From NCBI RefSeq assembly GCF_025643595.1, contig NZ_CP102826.1, positions 5,580,001-5,644,000 of the forward strand: a stretch of 64,000 nt of DNA. Reading direction: 5' to 3'. The stretch's first letter is position 1. The number at the start of each line of letters is the position of its first letter. Of the stretch, positions 1,998 through 55,139 are shown in pieces. Source of the DNA: Saccharopolyspora rosea. Lineage in GTDB: Bacteria > Actinomycetota > Actinomycetes > Mycobacteriales > Pseudonocardiaceae. Below the pieces are notes generated by a model. It was not told the origin of the DNA, made no database searches, and saw only the letters and a list, made by a program, of their open reading frames with translations. A program made the position numbers and the translations under genes.

Positions 1998-2045
1998 GAG
2001 CAAGGGAACTTCTCTGTCACATGTGGCAGAAAAGTTCCCTTGCTC
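1998..2045. repeat. 48-bp palindromic element, copy 1
   Basis: Inverted arms start GAGCAAGGGAAC and end GTTCCCTTGCTC around a CACATGTG core. It lies 6 bp after the sugar porter stop. The left arm has a mismatch (TTCTCTG against CAGAAAAG). Candidate terminator or MITE. Confidence 0.85.
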
Positions 2046-2329
2046 CACCCTTCCGCGCCGCCCGCCGGAATCACCGAATCGGCGTCTTAAGGTTCGTTTA
2101 CCCCTCGTGTGAGAGCCGCTTAGCGAACTCGCGGACTCCTGACAACAACCTTTGTGAACTGCGAAAACACCTCCCGCAAAACCGATCGGCGCAGGACAGG
2201 ACACATCGTCGCTGCAATGGACCAGGCAACTCCAATGGGTGAATATCTGGAGTGCCCCGCACGAGGAGCGCGAGTCCCGCACGACACCTTGCACCCGGGA
2301 CCGCCCCAACCCCGAAAGAGGAGTCCGAC
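2046..2329. other. LPMO upstream region, less G+C-rich
   Basis: This gap holds no convincing gene. It is visibly less G+C-rich than its surroundings between about 2080 and 2240 and probably carries the LPMO promoter. I see no clear DasR-type palindrome and no confident -35/-10 pair. Confidence 0.4.
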
Positions 2330-3106
2330 GTGAACGTGCGCCGCAAGGCTGCATCCGCCACCGCTCTGGGTGCCCTCACCATCGCCGGTGCCGTGCTGGC
2401 GCCGCAGGCGGCCTTCGCCCACGGAGACATGGGATCCCCGGCAGGCCGCGCCTACACCTGCTACCTCGAAGGCGCCGAAACCCCGAAATCCGAAGGTTGC
2501 AAGGGAGTCGTCGCCGAGAACGGCGCCGCCTCGATCTACGACTGGATGAGCAACCGCATCGGCGACGCCAACGGTCGGCACAAGGAACTGATCCCGGACG
2601 GCAAGCTCTGCAGTGCCAACAACCCGACCAACTCGGGATTCGACCGACCGGCCACCGCCTGGCCGACCACCCAGCTGAACACCGGCGACCTGCCCCTGCA
2701 CTTCAAGGCCACCGCGAAGCACCAGGGCTACTTCGACGTCTACATCACCAAGGACGGCTGGGACCCGTCCAAGCCGCTGGCGTGGAACGATCTCGAAACC
2801 CAACCGATCGCTCACGTCGAAAACCCGCAGGAGACCGGCGACGGTTACGAGCTGCCCGCCAGGATCCCGGCGGGGAAGTCCGGGCAGCACGTGCTCTACA
2901 CGATCTGGCAGCGCACGGACAGCCCCGAGGCCTTCTACTCCTGCTCGGACGTGGTCTTCGGCCAGCAGGGCACGTCCCGGACCGCGCAGCTGCAAACCGG
3001 GAAGCCCGAGGCGGTCACGGTCACCTCCCACGACCACGACGCGCACCACGCCGACCAGCCCGCGGCCCCCGACTTCTGGGGCAAGGTCCTGAGCCTGTTC
3101 GGCTGA
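2330..3106 (+). CDS. secreted lytic polysaccharide monooxygenase, AA10 family
   Basis: A 258-residue copper enzyme that oxidatively cleaves crystalline chitin or cellulose outside the cell. The signal peptide is residues 1-30 (twin Arg then a hydrophobic core, ending AFA). His31 becomes the mature N-terminus (HGDMGSPAGRAY), the obligatory first half of the copper histidine brace. His131 (ATAKHQGYFDVY) is the second ligand, and Phe202 in AFYSCSDVVF is the usual axial aromatic. A His-rich tail (about residues 225-245) follows, with no carbohydrate-binding module. The GTG start is chosen for the AAAGAGGAG site at 2315-2323; an in-frame ATG at 2252 would bury the signal peptide. Chitin versus cellulose specificity is not decided. 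Confidence 0.93.
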   Translation: MNVRRKAASATALGALTIAGAVLAPQAAFAHGDMGSPAGRAYTCYLEGAETPKSEGCKGVVAENGAASIYDWMSNRIGDANGRHKELIPDGKLCSANNPTNSGFDRPATAWPTTQLNTGDLPLHFKATAKHQGYFDVYITKDGWDPSKPLAWNDLETQPIAHVENPQETGDGYELPARIPAGKSGQHVLYTIWQRTDSPEAFYSCSDVVFGQQGTSRTAQLQTGKPEAVTVTSHDHDAHHADQPAAPDFWGKVLSLFG

Positions 3107-3121
3107 CCGACCCAGTCCGGT

Positions 3122-3169
3122 GAGTAAGGGAACCTTTCTGCCACATGTGGCAGAAAGGTTCCCTTGCTC
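3122..3169. repeat. 48-bp palindromic element, copy 2
   Basis: Near-perfect copy: AAGGGAACCTTTCTG, CCACATGTGG centre, CAGAAAGGTTCCCTT. It lies between the convergent LPMO and symporter genes, 15 bp after one stop and 6 bp after the other, where a shared bidirectional terminator would be expected. Confidence 0.9.
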
Positions 3170-3175
3170 CACCCC

Positions 3176-4741
3176 TCATCGGGAGCCGATGCCGGTGAGG
3201 GAACGCACCTCCATCTCCGCGGCCCGCCCGGGATCCTCCTCGGCGTCGCCGAGGAACGTGCCGATGCAGCCGCACAGGAACGAGATCGGGATGGACACGA
3301 GTCCGGGGTTGCTGAGCGGGAACCAGGCGAAGTCGACGTGCGGCAGGATCGACTCCGGGGAACCGGACACCACGGGCGAGAAGATCACCAGCACCAGGCA
3401 CGAACCCAACCCGCCGTAGATGCCCCACAACGTTCCGGTGGTGTTGAAGCGCTTCCAGAACAGCGAGAACAACAGCGTGGACAGGTTCGCCGAGGCCGCG
3501 AACGCGAAGGCCAGCGCCACCAGGAACGCGATGTTCTGGCCGTTGACGAGGATTCCGCCGACTATCGAGGCGGCGCCGACGACGAGCGCGGTCACCCGCG
3601 CGACGCGCACCTCCGAGTCGGGGTCGACTTCGCCGTGCTTGACGACGTTGGCGTACAGGTCGTGCGCGAACGACGCCGCGGCCGTCAAGGTGAGTCCGGC
3701 GACGACGGCGAGAATCGTGGCGAACGCGATCGCGGCGACGATCCCGAGCAGCACGGTGCCGCCGACCCGGTACGCCAGCAGCGGGGCGGCGGAGTTCTCC
3801 CCGCCCGGTGCCGACCGGATCACGTCGGTGCCGTTGACCGCCCCCGCCCCGTAGCCGATGACGAGCGTGCACAGGTAGAAGACGGCCATCGTGCACGTCG
3901 CCCACACCACCGACCGGCGCGCCTGGCGCGCGTTCGGCACGGTGTAGAACCGCATCAGCACGTGCGGCAACCCGGCCACTCCGAGCACCAGCGCCAGCGA
4001 CAGCGAGACGAAATCCAGTTTGGTCAGCTCGTCCTTGCCGTACTGGGCACCGGGGGCGAAGATCCGCACCCCGAGCGGGTTCTTCTCGGCTGCGTGCTGC
4101 ATCAGCGAGGTCATGCTGAACCCGAACTTCCCCATCAGGAACAGCGTCATGAGCACGGCGCACAGCATCAACATGCTGGCCTTGATGATCTGGACCCACG
4201 TGGTGCCCTTCATCCCGCCGACGAGCACGTACACGACCATGACCAAGCCGACGACGGCGATGACCAGGGCCTGGCCGCCGGCGCTGTGCACGTCCAGCAG
4301 CAGGGCCACGAGCCCGCCAGCACCGGCCATCTGAGCGATCATGTAGACGAACGAGATGACCAGCGTGGACACCGCGGCCGCGGCGCGCACCGGGCGCTGC
4401 CGCATCCGGAAGCTCAGGACGTCGCCCATGGTGAACCGCCCGGTGTTGCGCAGGAGTTCGGCGACCAGCAGCAGGTTCACCAGCCAGGCGACGAGGAATC
4501 CGATCGAGTACAGGAACCCGTCGTAGCCGTGGATGGCGATGGCGCCGGCGATGCCGAGGAACGACGCCGCGGACAGGAAGTCGCCGGACAGCGCGATCCC
4601 GTTCTGCGCGCCGGAGAACCGGCCGCCCGCGGCGAAGTAGTCGGTGGCGGTGCCGATGCTGCTGACGCGGTACACGATGACCAGCGTGATCAGCACGAAC
4701 ACACCGAAGATGCTGATGTTGAGCACGGGGTTCGTGGCCAT
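3176..4741 (-). CDS. cation:monocarboxylate symporter, ActP-like (SSS family)
   Basis: A 521-residue sodium:solute symporter expected to import acetate or another short monocarboxylate. About 13 hydrophobic helices are visible. The N-terminal stretch TDYFAAGGRFSGAQNGIAL and the following DFLSAASFLGIAG are typical of ActP/YjcG proteins. The ATG overlaps the stop of the upstream DUF485 gene (ATGA), the classical YjcH-ActP arrangement, so the two are translationally coupled. Start chosen at that overlap; an upstream extension of the frame is an artefact. It may support growth on acetate released during polymer degradation. Confidence 0.88.
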   Translation of the reverse strand: MATNPVLNISIFGVFVLITLVIVYRVSSIGTATDYFAAGGRFSGAQNGIALSGDFLSAASFLGIAGAIAIHGYDGFLYSIGFLVAWLVNLLLVAELLRNTGRFTMGDVLSFRMRQRPVRAAAAVSTLVISFVYMIAQMAGAGGLVALLLDVHSAGGQALVIAVVGLVMVVYVLVGGMKGTTWVQIIKASMLMLCAVLMTLFLMGKFGFSMTSLMQHAAEKNPLGVRIFAPGAQYGKDELTKLDFVSLSLALVLGVAGLPHVLMRFYTVPNARQARRSVVWATCTMAVFYLCTLVIGYGAGAVNGTDVIRSAPGGENSAAPLLAYRVGGTVLLGIVAAIAFATILAVVAGLTLTAAASFAHDLYANVVKHGEVDPDSEVRVARVTALVVGAASIVGGILVNGQNIAFLVALAFAFAASANLSTLLFSLFWKRFNTTGTLWGIYGGLGSCLVLVIFSPVVSGSPESILPHVDFAWFPLSNPGLVSIPISFLCGCIGTFLGDAEEDPGRAAEMEVRSLTGIGSR

Positions 4742-5154
4742 CACTCGGATTCCTCCCCGGTCGCCTCGCGGTGCAGCTCGAACACGCGCGGGTCGATCTG
4801 CCGCGAGGCGAACCTCAGGTAAAGCGCGGTGATCAGGATCGTGGAGGCGAACTGGCCGACTCCCATGAGGAGTCCGACGTTGATCTCGCCGACCAGCCGG
4901 ATGCCCATGAACTCCGGCAGGTAGGCGGCCGCGATGACGTACCCGAGGTACCAGATGAGGAACACGGCGCTCATCGGGAACACGAAGCGGCGCAACCTGG
5001 CGCGCAGGTCGAGGAATTCGGCGCTCTCGGCGATGGCGGAGTAGTCGGGTTCGCAAGCTCGCGGGCGAGGCGCGGCCTCGTCGATCCCGCCGAAGCGATC
5101 GACGTGGGCACCGGCGGGCGGGTGTGCGGATCGGGGGCGGGTTGCGTTGCGCAT
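4741..5154 (-). CDS. DUF485 membrane protein, partner of the ActP-like symporter
   Basis: A 137-residue protein with two hydrophobic helices (about residues 60-80 and 95-117; FVFPMSAVFLIWYLGYVIAA in the first), matching the DUF485/YjcH family. The first 50 residues are polar and Arg/Pro-rich. It precedes and overlaps the symporter gene by 4 bp, as is standard for this family. Its role is unknown; an accessory or stabilising function for the transporter is inferred. The start is supported by GGAAGGA a few bases upstream. Confidence 0.85.
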   Translation of the reverse strand: MRNATRPRSAHPPAGAHVDRFGGIDEAAPRPRACEPDYSAIAESAEFLDLRARLRRFVFPMSAVFLIWYLGYVIAAAYLPEFMGIRLVGEINVGLLMGVGQFASTILITALYLRFASRQIDPRVFELHREATGEESE

Positions 5155-5931
5155 GCGTCCTTCCAGGGCGGGGAGGAGTTCCGATGCGGTCCTGGACCGG
5201 TTTCCGCGGTTCCGCGCCGCCACGGCGGCTGTCGGGGTGCGCATCCACGCATCGGCGACCACGCGTGGACAGTGACGGCGGCGCCAACCGGGCCGGAAGT
5301 TTAGCCACGCAGCGCCGCCGAACGGAGGGTCGCGACAACACAGCACACTTATTGATGAATTCTCCGGTCACGCAGTGTGGTCAACTGTCACGAATCAGGT
5401 CAGCGCGCGAAACGAACCCGAAAGTCGTGATCTTCCTTCCGATTTCCCGTTCTCACCTGGTGGCGGGGACGCCGAGGGCGGTCCACCCGGCACCGGGCGA
5501 CCATTCCCGCTGATCAACAGCGCACTCGGGACAATTCTTCCCCCATCGGGGGATAAAGGGGTTCGCGTACCGCCGGAAATCGGACACCGCCGGTGCACGG
5601 GGCGTTTCCGGAACGGGGCGCCGCAGGCGATCGGCGGCGTCGAGAACTGGTGTCAACGCTGGTCAGAAAACCACGAACGAGTTAGTCCCGTGATCGAAAC
5701 GCTGAGGTAGGGTTCTGCAACCGACGACCCCGAGCCGATCCGAACGGAAGGCGGCAGAACTCGGCATCGACGCGTTCGAATGCCCAGGCACCGGAGACCG
5801 TACCGGATCCGAGGACCTGGACGCACGCAGCGCCGCCGACAGGCGAAAAGCCCCCAGGAAACGCAACTCCGCCCACCGCACGAACGCGCTGTTGGTGACA
5901 TGGATTCGACCGCGCGGGAAAGGACTGCGTC
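5155..5931. other. long divergent intergenic region (DUF485 / conservon)
   Basis: 777 bp between divergent genes with no gene I would support; short frames here lack ribosome sites and actinobacterial codon bias. The stretch 5330-5420 is A+T-rich for this genome and is a likely site for the symporter promoter. A TAGGGT hexamer at 5708-5713 could be a -10 for the conservon, but no -35 sits at a good distance. Confidence 0.4.
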
Positions 5932-8790
5932 GTGAGCAGCGAACCCGACCACTCGCCCGCGACCGCGCTCCGGGCGTCCACGTGGTCTGCCACCCTTCGG
6001 CGAATCACCGAGCGGATCACGAACTGGCGCAACTGGAAACTGCCCGTCAAGCTCGGCGCCGTCGTGCTCGTCCCGGTGATCTTCGCACTCGCACTGGGAA
6101 CGCTGCAGATCCAGGGCCAGGTCGCCAAGTCCGACGAGTACGCCGAACTGGACCGCCTCGTCGGCGCCATGAGCGCGGTGCGCTCGTCCGTCGCCGACCT
6201 GCAGCAGGAGCGAAGCCTGACCGCCGAATTCCTCGCCAGGGGCCCGGTTCCGGAACCCGAGCTCCGCGATCGGTTCGCCGCCGCGGACCGGAACCTGGAC
6301 GCGACCCGCCGGCTGCTGGAGTCCGCGCCGAACACCGCCGCCGTGCGGTCCGCCCGCGAGGAGGCCGATCGGTGGCTCAGCGACCTCACGGCGCTGCGCA
6401 CGCAGGTGTTGAACGGGCGGATGGACGCCGGGGCCGCCACCAACACCTACACCGACATCATCGGTGCGCTGCTGTCCCTGGATCGCACGCTGACCACCCA
6501 GATGTCGTCGGCGGAGCTGGTGTCCACCGCGACGACCGCGCACGAGCTCGCCAAGATCGGCGAGGAGATGCAGCTGCAGCAGGCGTTGCTGGTCACCGGG
6601 CTCACCCGTGGCACGTTCACCTCCGACGACCTGGCGCGGCTGGCGGCCAGCGAGTCGCGGCGCGCCTCCGCCGTGATGGAGTTCCGCGCCGCCGCCACCC
6701 CCGGGCAACGCGCCGAATACGACCGCCTCTACCTCAACCCGCAGGTCCCGGCTCGGGAGTCGGCCGTGCAGCTGGCCATGGACGCGCACAGCAGCGGTCG
6801 GGACAAGACCAGCCTGCCGCTCGCGCCGTCGACGTGGAAGGACCAGTCGCGTGCGGCGCTGAGCGCGGTCGGGTCCCTCCAGTCGCGGTTGGACCACCAG
6901 CTCCACAGGACCGCGTTCGCGTTGCAGGACAGCGCGAGCAACCTGGCGGGTACCGAGTCCGTGGTGCTGCTGTCCGCGCTGCTGGTCGCCGGAGCGGTCG
7001 TCGTGGTGGTGGCGCGGCAACTGCTCGGCTCCCTCGACGTGCTCCGGCGCACCGCCCTGGACACCGCGGAGAACCAGCTCCCCCGGGCGGTCGCCGACAT
7101 CCGGGCCGGGCACCGGCCGCGGGACCCGGTCACCCGGGTCCCGGTGGACACCGCCGACGAGGTCGGGCAGGTCGCGCGAGCCTTCGACGCGGTGCACACG
7201 CAGGCCGTCGGTCTCGCCGCCGAACAGGCCGACCTGCGGCGCAGCTACCGCGACTCGTTCGTCAACGTGTCCCGGCGCAGCCAGGGCCTGCTGGAACGCC
7301 AGCTGCGGTTGTTCGAGCAGCTCGAACGTGACGAGGAGGACCCCGACCAGCTGGCCACGCTGTTCCAGCTCGACCACCTGGCGACCCGCATGCGGCGCAA
7401 CAACGAGAACCTCATGGTCCTGTCCGGGACCGACCTCGCACGCCGGTTCACCCAGCCCGCCTCGGCCGCTGACCTCGTCCGAGCCGCGATCTCGGAGATC
7501 GAGCACTACCCGCGGGTCGTCGTCCAGCCGCTGCCCGACGCCCACGTCGTCGGCTACGCCGCCGGAGACGTGGTGCGTCTGCTGGCCGAACTGCTCGACA
7601 ACGCGGCGAACTTCTCCGCTCCGCAGACGCAGGTCGTCGTGAGCGGGCACCGCCGGGGAGACGGAAGTCTCGTCCTCGACATCGTCGACCGCGGGATCGG
7701 CATGAACGACGACGAACTCGACGCGGTGAACCGGCAACTCGCCGAGGGAGGCGAGGTCGAACCGTCCACCTCCCGGCGCATGGGGCTCTTCGTCGTCGGA
7801 CGGCTCGCCACCCGGCACGGTATCGACGTCGAATTCCGCCGCGGCCCCGAAGCCACCGGCGTCAACGCGGCCGTGTACTTCGGGCCCGAACTGCTGCTGG
7901 AACCGGCCGCGACCCCGACCGTGCAGACCAACGGCGCGCACCACCACGACACGCTCGTCGACGAGTTCGACTGGGCAGCGGCCGAGCAGGACGCGGCGGC
8001 GCAGCAGCCGGTCCGCAACGGCTTCCACCTGCTGCATCCGTCGCCGAACGGCCACGCCGCTGCTGCGGACGGCCCGGGGCCGGCCTCGCACGCGACGCCT
8101 CCCCGGCGCACCAACGGTTCCGCCCCGAGCCCGCCGCCTGATGGTCTCGCGCCGGCGTGGTTCCAGACGATGTCGCAGGGGTGTTCGGATCAGGGGGTCC
8201 AGTGGCCGGGCCGGCCGGCTGAGGGTGAGAGCAAGGGAACCTTTCTGTCACATGTGGAAGAAAGGTTCCCTTGCTCCCAGCCCGACGACAAGGACTGGAC
8301 CTTCGCCAGCGACACCGACAAGCAGCGCGCCGAGGAGGTCGCTGCCGCGGAACCCAACGACTACACCACGGCCGGCCTGCCCGTGCGGATCCCGCGCGCG
8401 CATCTCGTGGCGGGAAGCATCAACACCGACGAAGAACCCAAACGGCCACGTGACCCGAACGTCGCACGCAGCCGGCTCTCAAGTTTCCAGGAAGGTCTGC
8501 GACGCGGTCGCCACCGTCGGCAAGCCGCACCCCAACCCCCGCAGGGAACGCCGACCAGTGAAGCGGACGGCGGTGCCTCGGACCTCGCTTCCACCGGGCT
8601 TCCTCGTCGAGTCCCCAGAACCGAGTCGGCACCCAGCTCGACCAGCGACTTCGTGACCGCCCCACCGCGCGACGCCGACCAGATGCGCGGGCGCCTGGCC
8701 AGCTTCCAACGCGGAGTCCGAGAGGGCAAGCACACCCTCCGCGAACCAGGCGCCCGGCACACGAACACCGGTGAGAACCCGAACCAGTGA
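5932..8790 (+). CDS. cvnA: conservon sensor histidine kinase-like protein CvnA
   Basis: A 952-residue membrane sensor at the head of a four-gene conservon. A short cytoplasmic lead precedes TM1 (about 40-60), an extracytoplasmic nitrate-sensor-like (NIT) region, TM2 (about 343-365), a HAMP-like linker and a GHKL ATPase domain with N-box LAELLDNAANFS (about 551) and G-box DRGIGMND. The disordered tail repeats a motif twice: GLPVRIPR with RLSSFQEGLRRG, then GLPRRVPR with RLASFQRGVREG. Residues 767-782 (SKGTFLSHVEERFPCS) are encoded by a complete 48-bp palindromic element inserted in frame between the ATPase domain and these motifs. GTG start preceded by GGGAAAGGA. Confidence 0.9.
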   Translation: MSSEPDHSPATALRASTWSATLRRITERITNWRNWKLPVKLGAVVLVPVIFALALGTLQIQGQVAKSDEYAELDRLVGAMSAVRSSVADLQQERSLTAEFLARGPVPEPELRDRFAAADRNLDATRRLLESAPNTAAVRSAREEADRWLSDLTALRTQVLNGRMDAGAATNTYTDIIGALLSLDRTLTTQMSSAELVSTATTAHELAKIGEEMQLQQALLVTGLTRGTFTSDDLARLAASESRRASAVMEFRAAATPGQRAEYDRLYLNPQVPARESAVQLAMDAHSSGRDKTSLPLAPSTWKDQSRAALSAVGSLQSRLDHQLHRTAFALQDSASNLAGTESVVLLSALLVAGAVVVVVARQLLGSLDVLRRTALDTAENQLPRAVADIRAGHRPRDPVTRVPVDTADEVGQVARAFDAVHTQAVGLAAEQADLRRSYRDSFVNVSRRSQGLLERQLRLFEQLERDEEDPDQLATLFQLDHLATRMRRNNENLMVLSGTDLARRFTQPASAADLVRAAISEIEHYPRVVVQPLPDAHVVGYAAGDVVRLLAELLDNAANFSAPQTQVVVSGHRRGDGSLVLDIVDRGIGMNDDELDAVNRQLAEGGEVEPSTSRRMGLFVVGRLATRHGIDVEFRRGPEATGVNAAVYFGPELLLEPAATPTVQTNGAHHHDTLVDEFDWAAAEQDAAAQQPVRNGFHLLHPSPNGHAAAADGPGPASHATPPRRTNGSAPSPPPDGLAPAWFQTMSQGCSDQGVQWPGRPAEGESKGTFLSHVEERFPCSQPDDKDWTFASDTDKQRAEEVAAAEPNDYTTAGLPVRIPRAHLVAGSINTDEEPKRPRDPNVARSRLSSFQEGLRRGRHRRQAAPQPPQGTPTSEADGGASDLASTGLPRRVPRTESAPSSTSDFVTAPPRDADQMRGRLASFQRGVREGKHTLREPGARHTNTGENPNQ
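8229..8276. repeat. 48-bp palindromic element, copy 3, inside cvnA
   Basis: Full-length copy (GAGCAAGGGAAC arm, CACATGTGG centre, GTTCCCTTGCTC arm) lying in frame within the coding sequence of cvnA. It adds 16 codons without a stop. It falls in a disordered linker, so the protein may tolerate it. This is the only copy in the window inside a gene. Confidence 0.9.
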
Positions 8791-8807
8791 GGAGGACAGG
8801 AAGCGGT

Positions 8808-9248
8808 ATGAACGCCCACCAACCCCAGCCGAGCCAGTTCGGTTGGCTGGTCACCGACTTCACCGAACGCGTACCCGGCGTGGCGCACGCGGTCGTCGTC
8901 TCCGCCGACGGCCTGCTGTTGACGGCATCCGCGAAACTGCCGACCGACCGCGCGGACCAGTTGGCGGCCGTGGCCTCCGGCCTGCTCAGCCTCACCCAGG
9001 GAGCGGCGCGCTGCTTCGAGGCGGGCGCCGTGAACGAGACCGTCGTCGAAATGGAGCGCGGCCTCATGCTGCAGATGGCGATCAGCGACGGTTCCTGTCT
9101 GACCGTGCTCGCGGCGCCACACTGCGACATGGGCCTGATCGCCTACGAGATGGCTCTCCTGGTCGAGCGCGTCGGACAGATCCTGACCCCGGAGCTTCGT
9201 TCCCAGCTGCAGGGCTCCCACCAGGTGATGACCGGCCAATCGGTGTGA
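8808..9248 (+). CDS. cvnB: roadblock/LC7 domain protein CvnB
   Basis: A 146-residue single-domain roadblock/LC7 protein (FGWLVTDFTERVPGVAHAVV, then SADGLLLTAS), the second conserved member of conservons. In other actinomycetes such proteins bind the CvnD GTPase and the sensor at the membrane, in a eukaryote-like G-protein complex. It begins 17 bp after the cvnA stop with GGAGGACAGGAAG upstream. An in-frame GTG at 8787 overlaps the cvnA stop but has poorer support. Confidence 0.9.
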   Translation: MNAHQPQPSQFGWLVTDFTERVPGVAHAVVVSADGLLLTASAKLPTDRADQLAAVASGLLSLTQGAARCFEAGAVNETVVEMERGLMLQMAISDGSCLTVLAAPHCDMGLIAYEMALLVERVGQILTPELRSQLQGSHQVMTGQSV

Positions 9249-9255
9249 GGAAACC

Positions 9256-9831
9256 ATGAGCACAGGTCCGGACTCGTCTGGGCGGCATCGCGCCGCACCC
9301 CTCGCGTCATCCGATGTGGACTCGCTGGCAGAGGTGTTCAACCGGTTCACGTTGGACAGCGCGCGCCGGCAGCGGCAATCGACCGAGGAACCAGACACCG
9401 CCACCACCGCCCAGCCACCGGAGCCACCGTGGCCGGCCGCGGAATCCCGCTCCGAGGCGTCATCATCCGGGACGGACCCGTCGGAGGAGCACGTGACGGC
9501 CACCTCGATCCGCCCCTACGCCTGGACGGGTGGGCGGACGCGGTCCAACCACCACCTGGAGCTGGAGACGTTGGTGTCCACGAGCGAGTCCTGCCAGCCA
9601 GGTCGGCTCCGGCGTCTTGAGCACCACTCCGTCGCCGAGCTGTGCAGCCACCCGAGGTCCGTCGCCGAAGTGGGGGCGTTGTTGGGAGTGCCGTTGGGAG
9701 TCACGAAGGTGCTCCTCGGTGATATGGCCGATCTCGGACTGGTCACCGTGCATCGGACCGCGACCGAGGCAGGCAGTGCATCACAGATGGTTCTGATGGA
9801 AAGAGTCCTGAGTGGACTTCGACGGCTCTGA
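9256..9831 (+). CDS. cvnC: DUF742 protein CvnC
   Basis: A 191-residue protein with a polar, Pro/Glu-rich first half and the DUF742 region behind it: RPYAWTGGRTRSNHHLELET at about 92 and PLGVTKVLLGDMADLGLVTV at about 147, the latter resembling a winged helix. It is the third conservon member, of unknown biochemical role but always between the roadblock and GTPase genes. It starts 7 bp after cvnB. The N-terminal extension of about 90 residues is longer than in many family members. Confidence 0.88.
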   Translation: MSTGPDSSGRHRAAPLASSDVDSLAEVFNRFTLDSARRQRQSTEEPDTATTAQPPEPPWPAAESRSEASSSGTDPSEEHVTATSIRPYAWTGGRTRSNHHLELETLVSTSESCQPGRLRRLEHHSVAELCSHPRSVAEVGALLGVPLGVTKVLLGDMADLGLVTVHRTATEAGSASQMVLMERVLSGLRRL

Positions 9832-46601: not shown

Positions 46602-46623
46602 CGGCGAACCGCGTGGCGGGCGA

Positions 46624-46764: not shown

Positions 46765-46790
46765 CACCGCAGCGCCCGGCCGCGGCTCGT

Positions 46791-48134: not shown

Positions 48135-48160
48135 TGATCGGTCCTCCTGCGCCTTTCCGG

Positions 48161-48532
48161 CTATTCCGCGATCAGTTCGGCGTACTGCTGGGCGGTGAGC
48201 ACGGCACCGGTTTCGGTGGCGCGCACCTCCAGCAGCCAGCCCGCGTCGTACGGCTCGGAGTTGATCAGAGCCGGGTCGTCGACGACCGCGTCGTTGACGG
48301 CCGTGACCTCACCGGTCACCGGGGCGAACAAGTCGCTGACGGACTTGGTGGACTCCAGCTCACCGCAGGGCTGACCGGCCTCGATGCCGTCGCCGACCGC
48401 GGGCAGCTGCACGTAGACGATGTCACCGAGGGCGTCGGCGGCGTGCTGGGTGACCCCGATGCGGACCACGTCGTCGCGCTCCTGGAGCCACTCGTGTTCC
48501 TCGGTGTAGCGCAGGTGGGCGGGCAGGGTCAT
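48161..48532 (-). CDS. gcvH: glycine cleavage system H protein
   Basis: A 123-residue lipoyl carrier. The lipoylated Lys is in [15 protein letters not shown] (about residue 60), and HEWL is near the N-terminus. It shuttles the aminomethyl group between the P and T proteins, which are not in this window. It is directly downstream of a tandem glycine riboswitch and upstream of sdaA: glycine becomes serine through the cleavage system and hydroxymethyltransferase, then pyruvate. Confidence 0.95.
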
Positions 48533-48582
48533 CAGGGAGGCTCCATCCGTCGGGGGCACGTCGTGCCCGTGGTTCTGCCGGG

Positions 48583-48765
48583 CCTCCCCCTCTGTTGCGG
48601 AACCTGAGAGCTTCGCCGTCGTGTCGCGGCTTGCACCGTGGGTGCGGCGTCGGCGGTGACGCGCGCTTTCCAGAGTTGCCTCGCCCGAACGGTCATGGGT
48701 GCCTGAGAGTTTGCGGGGAGTCTTGCTCCTTCGGCGCCCTGTTAACCAGGGTCTCTCCCGCTCGG
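48583..48765 (-). promoter_or_regulatory. tandem glycine riboswitch upstream of gcvH-sdaA
   Basis: On the minus strand, aptamer 1 (about 48765-48688) reads GCGGGAGAGACC, CGCCGAAGGAGCAAG, GCAAACTCTCAGGCACC and ATGACCG. Aptamer 2 (about 48685-48583) reads CAACTCTGGAAAGCG, CACCGCCGACG, GGTGCAAG, CGAAGCTCTCAGG and CAGAGGGGGAG. These are the conserved cores of the gcvT riboswitch. A hairpin GGGCAC/GTGCCC at 48554-48568, 22 bp before the gcvH start, may be part of the expression platform. Glycine binding would be expected to switch on gcvH-sdaA. Confidence 0.9.
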
Positions 48766-48894
48766 GGTCGATGGCCGATATGCGATTGTCGATGTGCGAG
48801 CAACGATAAACGGGCCTGCGCGGGTGTCCAAGCCCCTCCCCGCCGAAGCCGGTGTGGTGAGCGGCACGCAGGCGGGGTTCCCGGGAGGACGGTG

Positions 48895-50451
48895 ATGTTG
48901 GACATCCGGGCGCTGGTGGAGCGCGTCGGGCCGGCGCTGCTGCGCGTCGTGGACCTGCCGGAGTCGACCGACTGCGTCGCGGACGTCGTCATCGCCGAAC
49001 CTGGTGGGGCGCCCGCGGTCGCGGGTGGCGACCTGGTGCTCGGGGTGGCCGTCGGTGACCGCGGCGCCGCGGTCGAGCTGGTGGGCGGCTGCGGTGCGCA
49101 GGGGGCGGCGGCGGTGCTGCTCAAGCCTCCGATCTCCACCGACGACGCCGTGGTCGAGGCGGCCCGCCGGTCCGGTGTCGCGCTGGTGGAGGTGTTGCCC
49201 GGCACGGCGTGGGCGCAGCTGGTGTGGTTGATCCGCGCCGCGCTGGCCGGTACTGGCACGCAGGAACCCGATACCCGCAGTCCCGGACTCGGCGATCTGT
49301 TCCGACTGGCGGACGCGGTCGCCGATGTCGTCGATGCGCCGGTGACCATTGAGGACGCGCATTCCCAGGTGTTGGCCTATTCGGCGCGCCAGGACCTCAC
49401 CGATCCGGCGCGGGTGTCCACCATCATGGGCCGCAAGCAGCCCGACGACGTGCTCGCCAAGTTCCGGGCCCGGGGGACGTTCCGGCAGCTCAGCAGGGGT
49501 GGCTCGGCGGTATTCGTGCCCGCCCAGCAGGACGGCACGCTGCCGCGCCTGGTGGTGCCGATCCGGATGGGCGGCGAACTGCTCGGCTCGATGTGGGCCG
49601 TGGTGCCGGGCGAGGTGTCCGAGGAGCGGTCCACCGCGTTCGCCGACACGGCGCCGCTGGTGGCGCTGCAGCTGCTGCGCTGGCGAGCGGTCGCCGACGC
49701 GGAGCGGCAGCGTTCGGCAGGTCAGGTGCGACTGCTGTTGGAGGGCGGCGAGGGGTGGCGGACGGCCGCCAACGAACTCGCCGTGCCGGACGAGCCGTAC
49801 CGGGTCGCCGCGATCGAGGTGCCTTCGCCGGAGGGGACCGCCGAGGGGCACCGGCTGGCGATGTGGGAGTGGATCACCCGCGGCATCGGCCGCCGACCGC
49901 TGGTCACCGAGATCGGCACCGTGCTCTACGCGCTGGTGCCGGACCGGGCCGGTTCGGGCGGCTGGCCTTCCCTTCGGGAAGCGCTCGTCTCGCACGACGC
50001 GACCCCGCCACCGCTCGTCGCAGTGGGCACCGCGGTCGCCGTCGCCGACCTGCCGCGCTCCCGCGCCGAAGCCGACGAGCTGCTGAGCCTGCTGCGCACC
50101 GGCCACCTGAGCCGGCGGGTGGCCGTGCACGAGGACCACTGGCACCAGCTCGTGCTCAACCGCATGGCGGGAGCCGCCACCGACGCCGGGATCAGCTCGC
50201 TCGGCCCGCTACCGACCCTCCGCGAACACGACCGCACCCAGGGCACCGACTACCTCTCCACTCTGCACTCGTGGCTGCGCCACCCGGGCGACCCGCGCCA
50301 GGCCGCCCGCGAGCTCCGCGTGCACCCCAACACGTTCCGCTACCGCATGAAGCGCCTCACCCAACTCGTGAACGTGGACCTGGACGACCCCGACGTCCGC
50401 TCGGCGCTCCTCGTCCAACTCCTCGCCGCCCGCTGGGCCCAGCACGGTTGA
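48895..50451 (+). CDS. PucR/CdaR-family transcriptional regulator
   Basis: A 518-residue regulator with an N-terminal purine-catabolism-regulator-like domain, a GAF-like centre ([20 protein letters not shown]) and the C-terminal helix-turn-helix [24 protein letters not shown] lies 6 bp before the ATG. It precedes alanine dehydrogenase on the same strand, so it is a candidate activator of ald; it is also divergent from gcvH-sdaA. The effector is unknown. The stop is 1 bp before a half-element cluster. Confidence 0.85.
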
Positions 50452-50452
50452 G

Positions 50453-50637
50453 GAGCAAGGGAACCTTTCTGCCACGGGAGGCGATGAAGGGAACCTTCCT
50501 GTCATGCCGCGCCCGGAGGTGCCGCAGCGGTCCGCGAGCAAGGGACCTCCCGGCCCCGGAGACGATGAAGGGAACCTTCCTGTCACTGCGCACCGTCGTG
50601 GCGCCAGCCGGGCCCGATGAAGGGAACCTTCCTGTCA
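50453..50637 (+). repeat. cluster of half-elements between pucR and ald
   Basis: Left-arm halves at 50453-50474, 50483-50504, 50564-50585 and 50616-50637, with a decayed one at 50536-50553 (GAGCAAGGGACCTCCCGG). All share one orientation, pointing with pucR transcription. The last three intact ones start GATGAAGGGAACCTTCCTGT. The rest of the gap, to 50801, holds the ald promoter; no hexamer pair is convincing. Confidence 0.85.
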
Positions 50638-50801
50638 CGGACCGCCGGGAGCGGCCGCGCGGACGCGATCGTCCGGCGACCGAAGCAGGAGCGTTGTGCT
50701 GCGGGCACAACCCAGCCGGGGCAATCTCATCCTGCGGGAATGATGCGGACGCTGGAGCGTCGGCGGATCGTAATGCGCAACACCGTCGAAAGGATTCCGC
50801 C

Positions 50802-51917
50802 GTGAAGATCGCCGTTCCGCGCGAGATCAAGAACAACGAGTACCGGGTCGCGATCACTCCCGCGGGCGTGCACGAGCTCACCACCCGCGGACACGAGGTC
50901 TTCGTCGAAGCGCAGGCGGGCGCCGGTTCCTCCATTCCGGACGAGGACTACCTCGCTGCGGGCGCCAAGGTGCTGCCGAGCGCGGAAGAGGTGTGGTCGG
51001 AAGGCCAGCTGGTGCTCAAGGTCAAGGAGCCGATCGCCGAGGAGTACCCGCGGCTGCGGCGCGGCCAGGTGCTGTTCACGTACCTGCACCTGGCCGCTTC
51101 CGCCGAGCTGACCGACGCGATGCTCCGTTCCGGTGTCACCGGCATCGCCTACGAGACGGTCCAGACCGAGAACGGCGCGCTGCCCTTGCTGGCGCCGATG
51201 AGCGAGGTCGCGGGTCGACTCGCGCCGCAGGTGGGCGCCTACTCCCTGATGCGCCCCAGCGGCGGCCGCGGCGTACTGCCGGGCGGCGTGCCCGGCGTGC
51301 ACCCGGCCCGGGTCGTGGTGATCGGCGGCGGCGTCGCCGGGCTCAACGCCGCACGGGTCGCACTGGGCATGGGCGCCGACGTCGAACTCCTGGACACCAA
51401 CGTCGACAAGCTCCGCGAGATCGACCGCGACTTCAGCGGACGCATCCGCACGGTCTCGTCGAACCGCTACTCGGTCGACCAGGCCGTGCGCTCCGCCGAC
51501 CTGGTCATCGGCGCGGTGCTCATCCCGGGCGCCAAAGCCCCGCAACTGGTGTCCAACCACCTGGTGTCGGAGATGAAGCCCGGCAGCGTCCTCGTCGACA
51601 TCGCCATCGACCAGGGCGGCTGCTTCGCCGACTCGCACCCAACCACGCACGACGACCCGACCTACCGGGTGCACAACTCGGTCTTCTACTGCGTGGCCAA
51701 CATGCCCGGCGCCGTGCCCAACACCTCCACCCACGCCCTGACCAACGTCACCCTCCCGTACGCGGTGCGCATCGCCGACCAGGGATGGCAGCAGGCCTGC
51801 CGGGGCGACGCCGCGCTGGCGCTGGGACTCAACACGCACGACGGAAAGCTGGTGAACCACCCCGTCGCCGAGGCGCACGGCCTGACCAGCACCTCGCTGG
51901 AGACGGTCCTGTCCTGA
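50802..51917 (+). CDS. ald: alanine dehydrogenase
   Basis: A 371-residue NAD-dependent enzyme interconverting L-alanine with pyruvate and ammonia. N-terminal KIAVPREIKNNEYRVAITPA includes the substrate Arg. Active-site Lys is in LVLKVKEP and His in YLHLAA. The NAD fold is VVVIGGGVAGLNAARVALGM near residue 170, and the late motif is ANMPGAVPNTSTHALTN. GTG start preceded by GAAAGGA. Together with sdaA it feeds pyruvate. Confidence 0.95.
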   Translation: MKIAVPREIKNNEYRVAITPAGVHELTTRGHEVFVEAQAGAGSSIPDEDYLAAGAKVLPSAEEVWSEGQLVLKVKEPIAEEYPRLRRGQVLFTYLHLAASAELTDAMLRSGVTGIAYETVQTENGALPLLAPMSEVAGRLAPQVGAYSLMRPSGGRGVLPGGVPGVHPARVVVIGGGVAGLNAARVALGMGADVELLDTNVDKLREIDRDFSGRIRTVSSNRYSVDQAVRSADLVIGAVLIPGAKAPQLVSNHLVSEMKPGSVLVDIAIDQGGCFADSHPTTHDDPTYRVHNSVFYCVANMPGAVPNTSTHALTNVTLPYAVRIADQGWQQACRGDAALALGLNTHDGKLVNHPVAEAHGLTSTSLETVLS

Positions 51918-51970
51918 TCCGCTCGGCGGCCACGGGTTCGGTCGGCGAATCCGTGGCCGCACCGGCCGGA

Positions 51971-52092
51971 GAGCAAGGGAACTTTTCTGCCACTCCCCCG
52001 CGAATGGGCGCGAAAGCGAAACCAAAGATACAAAATTGGTTCACGTTTTTCTCCGCCGCATCTCCTCGTGTGACAGGAAAGTTCCCTTGCTC
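51971..52092. repeat. palindromic element split by a 78-bp A+T-richer insert
   Basis: The left arm GAGCAAGGGAACTTTTCTGC (51971) and right arm TGACAGGAAAGTTCCCTTGC (52071) are complementary but separated by 78 bp containing the A-rich run around 52010-52050. It may be an expanded loop, an insertion into an element, or two halves. Confidence 0.75.
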
Positions 52093-52460
52093 CGCGCTCG
52101 GCTTCCGGCAGCGCGCTGTCCAGCTGAAACACGACATGGGGATCGCACGACCGAGGCGGTATTCACCGGGACAGCGACGGGGCGGCGCTGAAACGCATCC
52201 GCCGAGAACACGAAGGGGCGGCCCGCTCAACCAGCCTGGGGGTCACCGGGAGCAGGCCGCCACGTTCAGTGTAGGCCACGCTCCCCCGTTTGCGGACGGC
52301 GTGCGGGACGCGTGCGGGAGGAATTTCGGACCGAATCGATAACCACCCGATGGGGTGAGCAATGGGCCTCTCGGGTGCAGATGCACCCCTGAAGTGCCGA
52401 TGCCACCCGTCGGTGTCAGCACGGGGCGGGCCCGGCTGCGCCGCGACGGGAGGTGGCGAC
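52093..52460. other. non-coding stretch before the zinc-ribbon-like gene
   Basis: No gene is supported. A small hairpin GGGTGC-AGAT-GCACCC lies near 52374-52389. Nothing else is recognised. Confidence 0.4.
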
Positions 52461-52958
52461 GTGACGGACACGGCACTGCGCGAAGCGGTCCTGGACCGGC
52501 TCGACGAAGTGGACCGGGCGGTCACGTCCGGCGAGCCGGAGACGCTCCTGCCCGCCGCCCGCGAGGACCTCTACCGGCTCACCGAAGCGCTGCGCGCGCT
52601 CCTCGACCAACATCGCCCCGGTGAGAACGGACGCTGTCCCTCCTGCCACGGCACTCGGAGCAGACCGTGGCCGTGCGCGGTGTGGCTGGCGGGGCACCGG
52701 CTGCTCGTGACCGACCGCGCGCCCCGGCATGCGGACCACTCGGAGCGCGCCACGGCGCCCCGCGCGGTGCGGGTCCTGCCGAACCCGATCGTCGCCTCGG
52801 GCGAGCGCGGTCCCGGCGACTGGGACACCGGGGAGTTCGCACGCGTCCACCCGACTTCCGGACGGCCGCACACCGCCGCGCGAGGTCGTCGGCTGGAGAC
52901 CGACCCCGCCAGGATCCACCGCGCCGCGGTCGTGGAGCGCGGTCCCCGTTGGCCGTGA
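52461..52958 (+). CDS. small protein of unknown function with a Cys-rich knuckle
   Basis: A 165-residue protein. Residues 1-50 are helical and acidic/leucine-rich (LREAVLDRLDEVDRAV). GRCPSCHGTRSRPWPCAVW (about residues 56-75) contains three Cys and one His that could bind zinc. The rest is polar, Arg/Pro-rich and probably disordered. The GTG is preceded by GGGAGGT. No family is recognised; the C-terminal part is weakly supported as coding. Confidence 0.55.
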   Translation: MTDTALREAVLDRLDEVDRAVTSGEPETLLPAAREDLYRLTEALRALLDQHRPGENGRCPSCHGTRSRPWPCAVWLAGHRLLVTDRAPRHADHSERATAPRAVRVLPNPIVASGERGPGDWDTGEFARVHPTSGRPHTAARGRRLETDPARIHRAAVVERGPRWP

Positions 52959-53083
52959 CCCGGGCAACACCCGAGCGGCAGAGCTGAGAACCGGCTGGGA
53001 ATTTCGTCCCGGCTTCCCAAGTCACCGGGGCCCGTCCGGCAGGATGGGCGGCGCACTAGCGAACGGTGACGATGGAGGAGCGT

Positions 53084-54067
53084 GTGCACGACGGCAGCGG
53101 CCGGATCATGGTGCAGGGACTCAGCAAGAGCTTCGGGCCGATCAACGCGGTCCAGAACCTGAGCTTCGCCGTGCGGCCGGGAGCGGTGACCGGGTTCCTC
53201 GGACCGAACGGCTCCGGTAAGACCACGACGCTGCGCATGATCCTCGGACTGGTCACGCCCAGCGCGGGCACGGCGACGATCAACGGGCAGCCGTTCCACC
53301 AGTTGGCGAACCCGGCCAGGGTCGTCGGCGCGGTGCTGGAGGCGCAGAGCTTCCACCCCGGGCGGACCGCCCGCAACCACCTGCGCTGCTACGCCGCGGC
53401 GATGAACCTGCCGGACGAACAGGCCGACCGGGTGCTGGAACTGGTCGGACTGACCAGCGCGGCGCAGCGGAAGGCGGGGACGTTCTCGCTGGGCATGCGG
53501 CAACGGTTGGCGCTGGCGACCGCACTGCTCGGAGACCCCCAGGTGCTGGTGCTGGACGAGCCGGCCAACGGTCTGGACCCGGAGGGCATCGCCTGGCTGC
53601 GCAACTTCCTCAAGGCGTTCGCGGCGAGCGGTCGGACCGTGCTCGTGTCCAGCCACCTGCTCCGGGAGATGGAGCACACCGTCGAACACGTCGTGATCAT
53701 CAGCCACGGGCAGTGCGTCTACGACGGGCACCTCGACGAGCTGCGGGCGGCCCAGCGGTCGCGGGTGCTCGTGCAGGCGTCCGACCCGAACAAGCTCGTC
53801 CCGGCGCTGCAGGACGCGGAGCTGGGCATCGACTACCTCCCGGACGGGAGGCTGGCGGTGACCGGTGCCGACTCCCGGACCGTCGCCGACCTCGCGTTGG
53901 GCGCCGGGGTCGCCCTGTACGGGATGGAGGACGAGCAGGTCGACCTGGAGCAGCTGTTCTTCCAGCTCACCAGCGGCCAGTACGCCGCACCCGAGCAGCA
54001 TCCCGCCACCGCGGCGCGACCACCGGACGCGTCCGGGCACGGCAGCGGAAACGGAGGTATCGCCTGA
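53084..54067 (+). CDS. ABC transporter ATP-binding protein (ABC-2 type)
   Basis: A 327-residue ATPase. Walker A is GPNGSGKTTT, the signature FSLGMRQRLALA, Walker B VLVLDEPANGLDP and the switch SSHLL. The signature SLGMRQR (for LSGGQ) is typical of bacitracin/lantibiotic-type exporters such as BcrA. A C-terminal regulatory region of about 100 residues follows. The stop overlaps the permease ATG. The start is uncertain: GTG 53084 follows GGAGGAG closely; ATG 53072 and GTG 53066 are alternatives. Confidence 0.87.
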   Translation: MHDGSGRIMVQGLSKSFGPINAVQNLSFAVRPGAVTGFLGPNGSGKTTTLRMILGLVTPSAGTATINGQPFHQLANPARVVGAVLEAQSFHPGRTARNHLRCYAAAMNLPDEQADRVLELVGLTSAAQRKAGTFSLGMRQRLALATALLGDPQVLVLDEPANGLDPEGIAWLRNFLKAFAASGRTVLVSSHLLREMEHTVEHVVIISHGQCVYDGHLDELRAAQRSRVLVQASDPNKLVPALQDAELGIDYLPDGRLAVTGADSRTVADLALGAGVALYGMEDEQVDLEQLFFQLTSGQYAAPEQHPATAARPPDASGHGSGNGGIA

Positions 54068-54915
54068 TGGCCGGGCTGATCAGGGCCGAGTTCCGGAAGA
54101 TCTTCACGGTGCACCTGTGGTGGGCGCTGCTCATCCCGGTGGTCGTGCTCAGCTTCGGCGCCGGATGGCTCGGCACCGCGGTCGGAACCATCAACGACCT
54201 GGAACAGACGCTGGGCAGGCCGCTTCCGCTGGGCCTGCTCACCCAGGCGCTGTCGACGAACTTCAGCACGATCTTCGCGGCGCTGTTCGGCACGCTGGCC
54301 GTCGCCGGTGAGCACCGGAACAGGAGCATCACCACCAGCTACCTGACCGGGAACCCGCGGGGCGCCGTGCTCGGCGCGAAGCTGATCGCCTACACGGGCA
54401 TGGGCGTGCTGTACGGGCTGGTGAACGTGCTGTTCGCGAGCCTGGGCGCGCTGCTCGGCGCCGGGCTGGACGGCTTCGGCAACCCGTCCGACTGGTTCGC
54501 CGTGGGCGGCTCCGGGCTGCTGGCCATGGTGCTGTGGACGCTGCTGGGCGTCGGCTTCGGCGCGCTGGTCACCAACTCCGTGGTGGCGATCGTGGTCCTG
54601 CTCGTCTACAAGTTCGCCTTCGAGTTCATCGCGTCGATGTTCCTGACCGGTTCCCACGCCGCCGACGTCACCGCCTACCTGCCCGGTGCCGCCGGCAACG
54701 GCATCGTCAGCAATCTCGCCGTGCCGATCTTCGTCTCGGCCGTGGCCGGACCCGACGAGCCGTACACGCCGCAGGGCGTGTTCGAACTGCTGCACTTCTT
54801 CTTCGGCGGCACCTACGGCCACCCGTGGTGGTCGAGCCTGCTGACCTTCGCCGGCTACACGGCGGTCTTCGTCGTCGGTGGTTGGCTGCTCAGCCGCCGG
54901 CGCGACATCACGTGA
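54067..54915 (+). CDS. ABC-2 type permease
   Basis: A 282-residue membrane protein with six hydrophobic segments, starting LIRAEFRKIFTVHLWWALLI as in BcrB/ABC-2 permeases. It overlaps the ATPase stop by 1 bp (TGATG), and the two form an exporter. The cargo is unknown; relatives export peptides or confer antibiotic resistance. A family hairpin with a T run begins 13 bp after the stop. Confidence 0.87.
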   Translation: MAGLIRAEFRKIFTVHLWWALLIPVVVLSFGAGWLGTAVGTINDLEQTLGRPLPLGLLTQALSTNFSTIFAALFGTLAVAGEHRNRSITTSYLTGNPRGAVLGAKLIAYTGMGVLYGLVNVLFASLGALLGAGLDGFGNPSDWFAVGGSGLLAMVLWTLLGVGFGALVTNSVVAIVVLLVYKFAFEFIASMFLTGSHAADVTAYLPGAAGNGIVSNLAVPIFVSAVAGPDEPYTPQGVFELLHFFFGGTYGHPWWSSLLTFAGYTAVFVVGGWLLSRRRDIT

Positions 54916-54927
54916 CGGCCGGCGACC

Positions 54928-54974
54928 GATGAAGGGAACCTTCCTGCCACCTGGGCGCGGAAGGTTCCCTTTTT
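54928..54974 (+). terminator. family element with a T tract: likely intrinsic terminator
   Basis: AAGGGAACCTTCC pairs with GGAAGGTTCCCTT across a 13-bp loop and is followed by TTTT at 54971-54974. It follows the permease stop by 12 bp. It is the best direct hint that this repeat family acts as terminators. Confidence 0.8.
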
Positions 54975-54985
54975 CGTGTCCGACG

Positions 54986-55139
54986 TGGCAGGAAGGTTCC
55001 CTTGCTCACGCAAGGCGCTGCCCCGAGTGCGGTGGGATGACGGCCGCCTGAGGTGACAGGAAGGTTCCCTTCACGCCGTCGTTGACAGGAAAGTTCCCTT
55101 GCTCCCGTCCCGCCGGGGATGAAGGGAACCTTCCTGCCA
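54986..55139. repeat. cluster of four half-elements, mixed orientation
   Basis: Right-arm halves at 54986-55007, 55054-55073 and 55083-55104, and a left-arm half at 55118-55139. The region ends 82 bp before the ABC exporter start; no gene lies here. Confidence 0.8.

What the first reader, a model, noticed from the sequence alone, without database searches (positions are those of the whole stretch)
1998..55139. Dispersed family of about 17 palindromic 48-bp elements and about 17 half-elements
Seen directly: full copies start at 1998, 3122, 8229, 10525, 13569, 15358, 16967, 19466, 19533, 22904, 22972, 32012, 38034, 38145, 46554, 51971 and 54928. Arms AAGGGAACCTTTCTG and CAGAAAGGTTCCCTT flank CACATGTG. 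Arm changes often covary (TTTCT/AGAAA to TTCCT/AGGAA) or give G-U pairs, so the RNA or cruciform hairpin seems selected. Nearly all sit at 3' ends of transcription units, five loci between convergent genes, and none inside an operon gap with overlapping genes. One copy (54928) has a T tract. Inference: bidirectional terminators or 3' stabilisers that spread like MITEs/REPs. I know of no named family matching them.
Basis: partly seen in the sequence, partly recalled or inferred. Interest (0 to 1): 0.85.

Follow-up and report, generated by a model that had tools for sequence, protein, structure and literature searches.

The report
Repeats confined to one chromosome domain
A family of short palindromic DNA repeats fills the gaps between genes in one roughly 200-kilobase stretch of a soil actinobacterium's chromosome and almost nowhere else, and related species carry it in the same stretch, which suggests that the repeats mark and perhaps organise that part of the chromosome.

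Summary
All 57 exact half-sites in the 6.56-Mb genome lie within 203 kb, 0.9-1.1 Mb from dnaA. Six genomes of three genus groups carry the family in the same syntenic block: 401 of 405 exact sites. Two related genomes, G033 and G122, keep the genes without the sites.

The unit is the half-site, a 25-27-bp near-palindrome, not the 48-bp palindrome: G034 has mostly inverted pairs, G005 and G013 mostly same-direction arrays. Arm covariation is weak, T-tracts are absent, and G034 shows no gap-type preference. No Y1 transposase was found in the own genome. Terminator, MITE and REP readings do not explain the confinement. Other repeat families in relatives are dispersed.

Best reading: sites for an unidentified dimeric DNA-binding protein that marks one lateral chromosome domain, working like matS/MatP but not shown to be related (about 0.45). 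Main rival: a repeat that copies itself only locally (about 0.35). No protein was found, and binding is untested.

The parts
1998..2045 (.). canonical 48-bp palindrome (two half-sites 22 bp apart)
3122..3169 (.). canonical 48-bp palindrome; folds at -40.2 kcal/mol as RNA
8229..8276 (.). canonical 48-bp palindrome
10525..10572 (.). canonical 48-bp palindrome
13569..13616 (.). canonical 48-bp palindrome
15362..15424 (.). two facing half-sites 45 bp apart (15362-15379 +, 15407-15424 -); not a contiguous palindrome
16967..17014 (.). canonical 48-bp palindrome
19407..19424 (-). single half-site
19466..19506 (.). shortened palindrome, half-sites 15 bp apart
19533..19580 (.). canonical 48-bp palindrome
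22904..22952 (.). palindrome with half-sites 23 bp apart
22972..23019 (.). canonical 48-bp palindrome, degenerate left arm, followed by half-site 23030-23047 (-)
31893..31994 (+). three same-direction half-sites (31893, 31936, 31977)
32012..32059 (.). canonical 48-bp palindrome
38034..38081 (.). canonical 48-bp palindrome
38145..38192 (.). canonical 48-bp palindrome
46554..46601 (.). canonical 48-bp palindrome
46624..46760 (-). array of four same-direction half-sites (46624, 46660, 46690, 46743)
50457..50637 (+). array of four same-direction half-sites (50457, 50487, 50568, 50620)
51975..52088 (.). two facing half-sites 96 bp apart (51975-51992 +, 52071-52088 -); not a contiguous palindrome
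54928..54975 (.). 48-bp palindrome with degenerate right arm
54986..55139 (.). cluster of four half-sites (54986 -, 55054 -, 55083 -, 55122 +), next to a gene end that faces sites in 6 of 6 site-bearing genomes compared
88..105 (-). half-site with one mismatch, inside a gene called by my own caller
1..64000 (.). the window covers the densest part of the own-genome site domain (genome 5,477,996-5,681,200; window = 5,580,001-5,644,000)

Best explanation
The half-site (core AAGGGAACCTTYCTGTCA, a 25-27-bp near-palindrome) is most likely the binding site of a dimeric, sequence-specific DNA-binding protein. Dozens of sites, placed between genes as inverted pairs, arrays or singles, mark one conserved lateral domain (sites span 122-263 kb in six genomes), roughly 0.8-1.4 Mb from dnaA on one replichore in the four genomes where dnaA was placed. 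Binding to many sites would let the protein bridge, condense, anchor or otherwise handle that domain as a unit, as MatP does at matS sites in the E. coli Ter macrodomain. Shown here: the sites, their dyad symmetry, their confinement, the conserved domain, site turnover inside the domain, and absence from two relatives with the same genes. Inferred: the protein, dimeric binding, and the function. The 48-bp palindromes are two sites back to back.
For: Confinement: 57 of 57 exact sites, and 80 of 84 at up to 3 mismatches, lie in 203 kb; the other 4 all have 3 mismatches (one of the 80, window 11698, I judge a non-member). Across six genomes 401 of 405 exact sites fall in the fetched syntenic regions of 200-400 kb. 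Placed at the nearest ortholog in own-genome coordinates, sites of all six lie within about 5,466k-5,660k, with an isolated outpost near 5,680k in 4 of 6 (4 of 102 G143 sites mapped to a displaced ortholog). The domain lies on the same side of dnaA in the 4 genomes tested, taking the chromosomes as circular. Individual sites turn over while the domain stays: of gene ends facing sites, 35 do so in one genome only and 6 in all six. The core GGGAAC is 98-100% invariant among 113 unpaired half-sites of G013 and 93-100% among the unpaired ones of G000, G005 and G161 (31, 75, 56 sites), so its conservation does not need a hairpin partner (in G034, 9 unpaired sites, one position is at 89%). Repeat families in related genomes are dispersed (GTGAACGGACCGTTC in G177 and G122; AAAGCGACCCGCAAGGCC in G033; some lists capped), so confinement is not the default there.
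Against: No binding protein was found and binding was not tested. In the gene comparison only one called domain gene is present in all five other site-bearing genomes and absent from G122 (own-genome 5,478,304-5,479,461, no Pfam match); it does not look like a DNA-binding protein, and the G033 stretch fetched did not cover its place. Each genome has its own variant of the consensus, and in G143 and G161 arrays repeat with a 29-bp period, which suggests copying of repeats. Four close genomes (G012, G033, G090, G122) have no exact match, so the system is dispensable. A second family in G161 also forms a dense zone elsewhere, so regional clustering is not unique. Depletion from divergent gaps in 5 of 6 genomes and the scarcity of sites next to downstream starts in tandem gaps are not predicted by this model, though avoidance of promoters could give them.
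Confidence: 0.45

Rival explanations
1. Locally spreading non-autonomous repeat: the unit multiplies by slippage (29-bp tandem arrays), inverted duplication and short-range copying or gene conversion that reaches only neighbouring DNA. The domain is then simply where the family arose.
For: Genome-specific consensus; 29-bp-period arrays in G143 and G161 and copy number changing within the same gap between G177 and G161, such as 3 versus 7; a dense local zone of another family in G161 at 0.69-0.92 Mb, although that family also occurs elsewhere; slight excess of arm-to-arm identity in full palindromes, strongest in G161 (1 of 2000 shuffles).
Against: Borders differ by only a few tens of kb across three genus groups, and an isolated outpost sits at the same gene end in 4 of 6 genomes. 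Almost no leakage in six genomes (401 of 405). Other families in these relatives are dispersed. No copying enzyme was found; the one family looked for, Y1_Tnp, is absent from the own genome. No clean insertion or target duplication was seen in the eight alignments of G177 gaps with G161 or G143.
Confidence: 0.35
2. Transcription terminators or 3' mRNA stabilisers: the transcribed 48-bp hairpin ends or protects transcripts from both sides.
For: Full copies fold very stably, e.g. -40.2 kcal/mol. In the own genome density is 6.45 per kb in convergent, 2.46 in tandem and 0.48 in divergent gaps.
Against: This gives no reason for confinement to 3% of the chromosome. G034 shows no gap-type preference. 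G013 and G005 have few 48-bp palindromes, 2 and 6. TTTT beyond the ends in 0 of 24, 32, 23 and 22 full copies. Covariation is weak.
Confidence: 0.12
3. Operators of a local transcription factor controlling the genes of the block.
For: Dyad-symmetric sites and species-specific motif drift fit a regulator.
Against: Divergent promoter gaps are depleted in 5 of 6 genomes; the neighbouring genes are mixed (transporters, thiolase, alanine dehydrogenase and others).
Confidence: 0.05

Closest known systems
matS/MatP, Ter macrodomain of E. coli
   Same: A short site repeated many times and restricted to one chromosomal domain. In E. coli a 13-bp site occurs 23 times in 800 kb (PMC3330122, abstract and passages).
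   Different: Different sequence; longer site; inverted pairs and arrays; far denser; on one replichore away from the terminus; no MatP-like protein shown.
MaoP/maoS, and the E. coli Left and Right macrodomains
   Same: Domain-scale chromosome organisation away from the terminus.
   Different: maoS is a single 17-bp sequence near oriC. For Left and Right, the authors searched for domain-specific motifs of 8-15 bp and found none (PMC5441646, passages).
tidR and tidL insulators of E. coli
   Same: Palindromic sequences in the Right and Left macrodomains that act on domain behaviour (PMC3330122, passages).
   Different: Two single 12-bp sites that insulate Ter, not an array filling a domain.
REP/BIME sequences with RAYT transposases
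   Same: Short palindromic intergenic repeats as singles and inverted pairs.
   Different: Confined to about 200 kb; no Y1_Tnp match in the own genome. That REPs are many per genome rests on an abstract start only (PMC2817692, listing).
MITEs
   Same: Small non-autonomous inverted repeats in gaps between genes.
   Different: No target duplication seen and no dispersal; partner transposases other than Y1_Tnp were not searched for.
parS/ParB and Noc binding sites (recalled)
   Same: Clustered dyad sites on one chromosomal region.
   Different: Different sequence from the recalled parS; not around oriC. No parS search was run here.

Membership tests
REP/RAYT repeats | copies dispersed over the genome | tested here: not met
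   57 of 57 exact sites in 203 kb of 6.56 Mb
REP/RAYT repeats | a REP-associated tyrosine (Y1) transposase in the genome | tested here: not met
   PF01797 absent in G000, G013, G034, G143 and G161; present in G005 only among 6 site-bearing genomes; present in all 4 site-free genomes tested
MITE | clean insertion with target-site duplication | tested here: inconclusive
   No clean insertion in eight alignments of G177 gaps with G161 or G143, read by eye; gaps differ mostly by array changes
intrinsic terminator | stable hairpin followed by a T-tract | tested here: not met
   Hairpin met; TTTT beyond the ends in 0 of 24, 32, 23 and 22 full copies in G000, G034, G143, G161
bidirectional terminator or 3' element | consistent placement at 3' ends | tested here: inconclusive
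   Divergent gaps depleted in 5 of 6 genomes; convergent clearly above tandem in 3 of 6 (G000, G013, G143); no gap-type preference in G034
bidirectional terminator or 3' element | transcript ends at the elements | not testable with these tools
   needs Term-seq or RNA-seq
domain-specific site array (works like matS) | many copies of one short dyad site restricted to one domain, conserved in relatives | tested here: met
matS/MatP | sites lie in the terminus region | tested here: not met
   domain 0.88-1.08 Mb from dnaA in a 6.56-Mb genome taken as circular; the terminus itself was not located
matS/MatP | MatP protein binds the site | not tested
   no MatP search was run and no binding data exist
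parS/ParB | parS sequence near oriC | not tested
   the sequence differs from the recalled parS; no parS search was run
Rfam RNA family | match to a curated covariance model | tested here: not met
   at the gathering threshold only two glycine riboswitch aptamers matched in the window

The most novel reading that the evidence does not exclude
A site-specific system that defines a lateral chromosome domain on one replichore: an unknown actinobacterial protein recognises dozens of 25-27-bp dyad sites, and the domain has been kept in place across three genus groups while individual sites come and go. It would be a lateral counterpart of the Ter-organising MatP/matS system.
Probability: 0.4. Interest if true: 0.92.

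Novelty: new variant of a known kind. Interest (0 to 1): 0.78.

Why it matters
In E. coli the authors found no sequence motif specific to the lateral (Left and Right) macrodomains (PMC5441646); only two single palindromes, tidR and tidL, appear in the passages I saw (PMC3330122). A dense, conserved, single-arm array of dyad sites in actinobacteria would show that a lateral domain can be encoded in DNA sequence, and would give a short bait for finding a new chromosome-organising protein. Close relatives without the sites offer natural controls. If the local-spread reading is right instead, it is a repeat family with strict territorial limits, for which no copying mechanism is known to me.

Tried and rejected
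Genome-wide terminator, REP and MITE reading: weakened by confinement, no T-tracts, no gap-type preference in G034 and no Y1_Tnp in the own genome.

Hairpin selection through covariation: re-tested in two ways. The tool's pair counts on 24 own-genome copies give a modestly high covariation score (12 of 500 shuffles) but no excess of pairs changed on both sides. Arm-to-arm identity against shuffled partners: 217 of 2000 shuffles as high in G000, 53 in G034, 17 in G143, 1 in G161, 71 in G005, 520 in G177; G013 had only 2 full palindromes. A small excess exists, which duplication of whole palindromes could also give.

Another motif in the same block of site-free genomes: G033 and G122 hold other repeats there (AAAGCGACCCGCAAGGCC; GTGAACGGACCGTTC), but these occur across their genomes. 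In 60 kb around kgd in G012 no repeated intergenic 11-mer exceeded 4 copies.

Many local families tiling the chromosome: two 200-kb control regions of the own genome have no intergenic 11-mer above 8 copies, against 43 in the domain. G161 does have a second dense zone of a different family, so this is not fully excluded for relatives.

Exclusion of the second family from the domain in G161 (0 matches in 200 kb): those sites are clustered, so I judged the absence not clearly significant.

Driver gene in the domain: comparison with G033 and G122 gave one candidate, a protein at the left border with no tblastn match in the G122 stretch; weak. The G033 stretch did not reach that place, so zeros for G033 outside its fetched span are not absences.

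Phages: 9 single exact matches in the viral collection; I judged them chance, without a computed expectation.

Literature: searches gave no paper on this repeat or on a Saccharopolyspora domain-specific motif in their listings; PMC3610266 (outline and passages) describes other features of the S. erythraea genome.

Full report
What was checked. The window is G000:C1:5,580,001-5,644,000 of a single-contig 6,562,638-bp genome. Its genus group (g1) is probably Saccharopolyspora: the best named relatives of a window ABC-transporter ATPase are S. rectivirgula (79%) and Saccharopolyspora sp. HNM0983 (78%). The HNM0983 locus carries 12 sites at up to 2 mismatches in 20.7 kb; the S. rectivirgula locus has none in 21 kb.

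The repeats in the window. The 18-bp core AAGGGAACYTTYCTGYCA at up to 4 mismatches gives 54 hits against 1, 3 and 3 in three mononucleotide shuffles. I drop two as non-members (11698, 59779) and keep 52 half-sites.

Confinement. In the whole genome the exact core occurs 57 times, all between 5,478,018 and 5,681,200, with 0 for the reversed pattern. At up to 3 mismatches there are 84 matches, 80 in 5,477,996-5,681,200 (one of them window 11698); the remaining 4 all have 3 mismatches. If the 27 clusters counted were placed at random, having all in 3.1% of the genome would be vanishingly unlikely (my arithmetic). dnaA lies at about base 700, so the domain is 0.88-1.08 Mb to one side of it if the contig is a closed circle, and not opposite the origin. 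Two 200-kb control regions of the same genome contain no intergenic 11-mer above 8 copies, against 43 for AAGGGAACCTT in the domain.

Relatives. With the first pattern 22 of 61 genomes have matches. In 297 genomes of the family (core widened to AWGGGAACNTTYCTGYCA, exact) 26 have matches: 21 of 22 of the own genus group, G034 of another, and 4 of 6 of a third (g68). The reversed control was 0 throughout. For the six genomes whose regions I read, exact sites in the fetched region against genome-wide counts are: G000 57 of 57, G034 39 of 40, G005 79 of 79, G013 106 of 109, G143 41 of 41, G161 79 of 79. The fetched regions are 200-400 kb and lie in one syntenic block. In G000, G034, G005 and G013 the domain lies 0.88-1.08, 0.83-1.00, 1.10-1.33 and 1.15-1.41 Mb from dnaA, on the same side once the orientation of dnaA is taken into account (circular chromosomes assumed for the first two).

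Borders and turnover. The sites span 203, 166, 231, 263, 122 and 180 kb in G000, G034, G005, G013, G143 and G161. Placed at the nearest ortholog in own-genome coordinates they lie within about 5,466k-5,660k, with an isolated outpost at about 5,680k in G000, G034, G013 and G161 (4 of 102 G143 sites mapped to a displaced ortholog and fall outside the profile). Of gene ends facing sites, 35 do so in one genome, 34 in two, 20 in three, 15 in four, 16 in five and 6 in all six. Occupancy of orthologous gaps is correlated between G000 and G034, G005, G013 (Fisher p 5e-4, 5e-7, 1e-6) with many differences, e.g. 10 gaps occupied in G034 only and 4 in both. The syntenic regions of G033 (114 orthologs) and G122 (141 orthologs) have 0 sites, and 60 kb of G012 around kgd has none.

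Anatomy. The half-site is the unit. In G034 it reads TGACAGtAAGGGAACTTTCCTGTCA, a near-palindrome; in G161 the surrounding unit reads GTGxxAGGAAGG-TTC-CCTTCCTxxCAC (my reading). Palindromic pairs at 22 bp number 23 in G000 and 25 in G034, but 6 in G005 and 2 in G013, where same-direction neighbours prevail. G143 and G161 have both, 22 and 19 pairs beside arrays with a 29-bp period. Among 113 unpaired half-sites of G013 the GGGAAC core is 98-100% invariant; in G000, G005 and G161 it is 93-100%, and in the 9 of G034 one position is at 89% (sites were chosen by pattern at up to 3 mismatches, which inflates this somewhat). This fits sequence-specific recognition more than hairpin structure. Variable positions differ by genome, e.g. 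ATGGGAAC in about three quarters of G013 sites and AAGGGAAC in nearly all G000 sites.

Placement. Sites per kb in convergent, tandem and divergent gaps of at least 40 bp: G000 6.45, 2.46, 0.48; G034 1.71, 1.64, 1.67; G005 2.14, 2.09, 0.72; G013 6.43, 2.67, 1.38; G143 12.14, 5.33, 1.92; G161 2.27, 3.18, 1.14. Divergent gaps are depleted in five of six; convergent gaps are clearly above tandem ones in three. Within tandem gaps the fifth next to the downstream start holds 0, 0, 5, 1, 2 and 0 sites (same call, order G000, G034, G005, G013, G143, G161), so a lean away from starts exists in G034 too. At most 3 sites per genome lie in called genes. Gene calls came from my own simple caller, not from annotation.

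Structure. Full copies fold well (e.g. -40.2 kcal/mol, z -12.6), as any long palindrome must. Covariation between arms is slight overall, clearest in G161. TTTT beyond the ends is found in 0 of 24, 32, 23 and 22 full copies.

Contrast families. In G161 they are also dispersed, with a dense zone at 0.69-0.92 Mb. In G033 a third family, AAAGCGACCCGCAAGGCC, is dispersed (32 matches at up to 2 mismatches). Intergenic repeat families in relatives are thus not confined as this one is, although the G161 dense zone shows that local build-up occurs.

Mobility. Y1_Tnp is absent from G000, G013, G034, G143 and G161, present in G005, and present in all four site-free genomes tested. Other transposase families were not searched for. 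Between G177 and G161 (89.8% nucleotide identity over the 40 kb compared) the 12 listed gaps carry sites in both, with different copy numbers in 6, and no clean insertion was seen in the eight alignments printed.

Reading. The best account is a domain-specific set of binding sites for an unknown dimeric protein. What it works like is matS/MatP; it is not filed as a member, since the site sequence and the chromosomal position differ and no MatP-type protein has been shown or searched for. For E. coli, Duigou and Boccard report that they could not find motifs specific to the Right and Left macrodomains (PMC5441646, passages read). Local spread remains a serious rival, and both may act together: local copying could supply sites and selection could keep them inside the domain.

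Noticed in passing
window 48582-48770 (-): Tandem glycine riboswitch aptamers (66.5 and 32.5 bits) upstream of a minus-strand gene that reads as gcvH (by eye), followed by a serine ammonia-lyase gene.
   Followed up: no
own genome C1:5,553,154-5,569,921, L048-L049: An integrative-element-like block (integrase-like and replication-like proteins, by eye from sequence starts) lies inside the site domain and carries no sites.
   Followed up: partly
G161 C1:0.69-0.92 Mb, L186-L194 (0.68-0.86 Mb read): A second, unrelated repeat family (GTGAACGGACCGTTCGTCCAAT) forms dense arrays of inverted pairs 32 bp apart: 150 matches at up to 2 mismatches in 180 kb, some counted on both strands; elsewhere it is dispersed.
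   Followed up: partly
G033 C1:7.01-7.11 Mb, L116-L120: A third repeat family (AAAGCGACCCGCAAGGCC), in places arrayed at about 55-bp period, dispersed over the G033 chromosome.
   Followed up: partly
L044:18304-19458 (own genome 5,478,304-5,479,461): A 385-aa protein with no Pfam match at the left edge of the domain, just after a cluster of sites; orthologs in five other site-bearing genomes, no tblastn match in the G122 stretch.
   Followed up: partly
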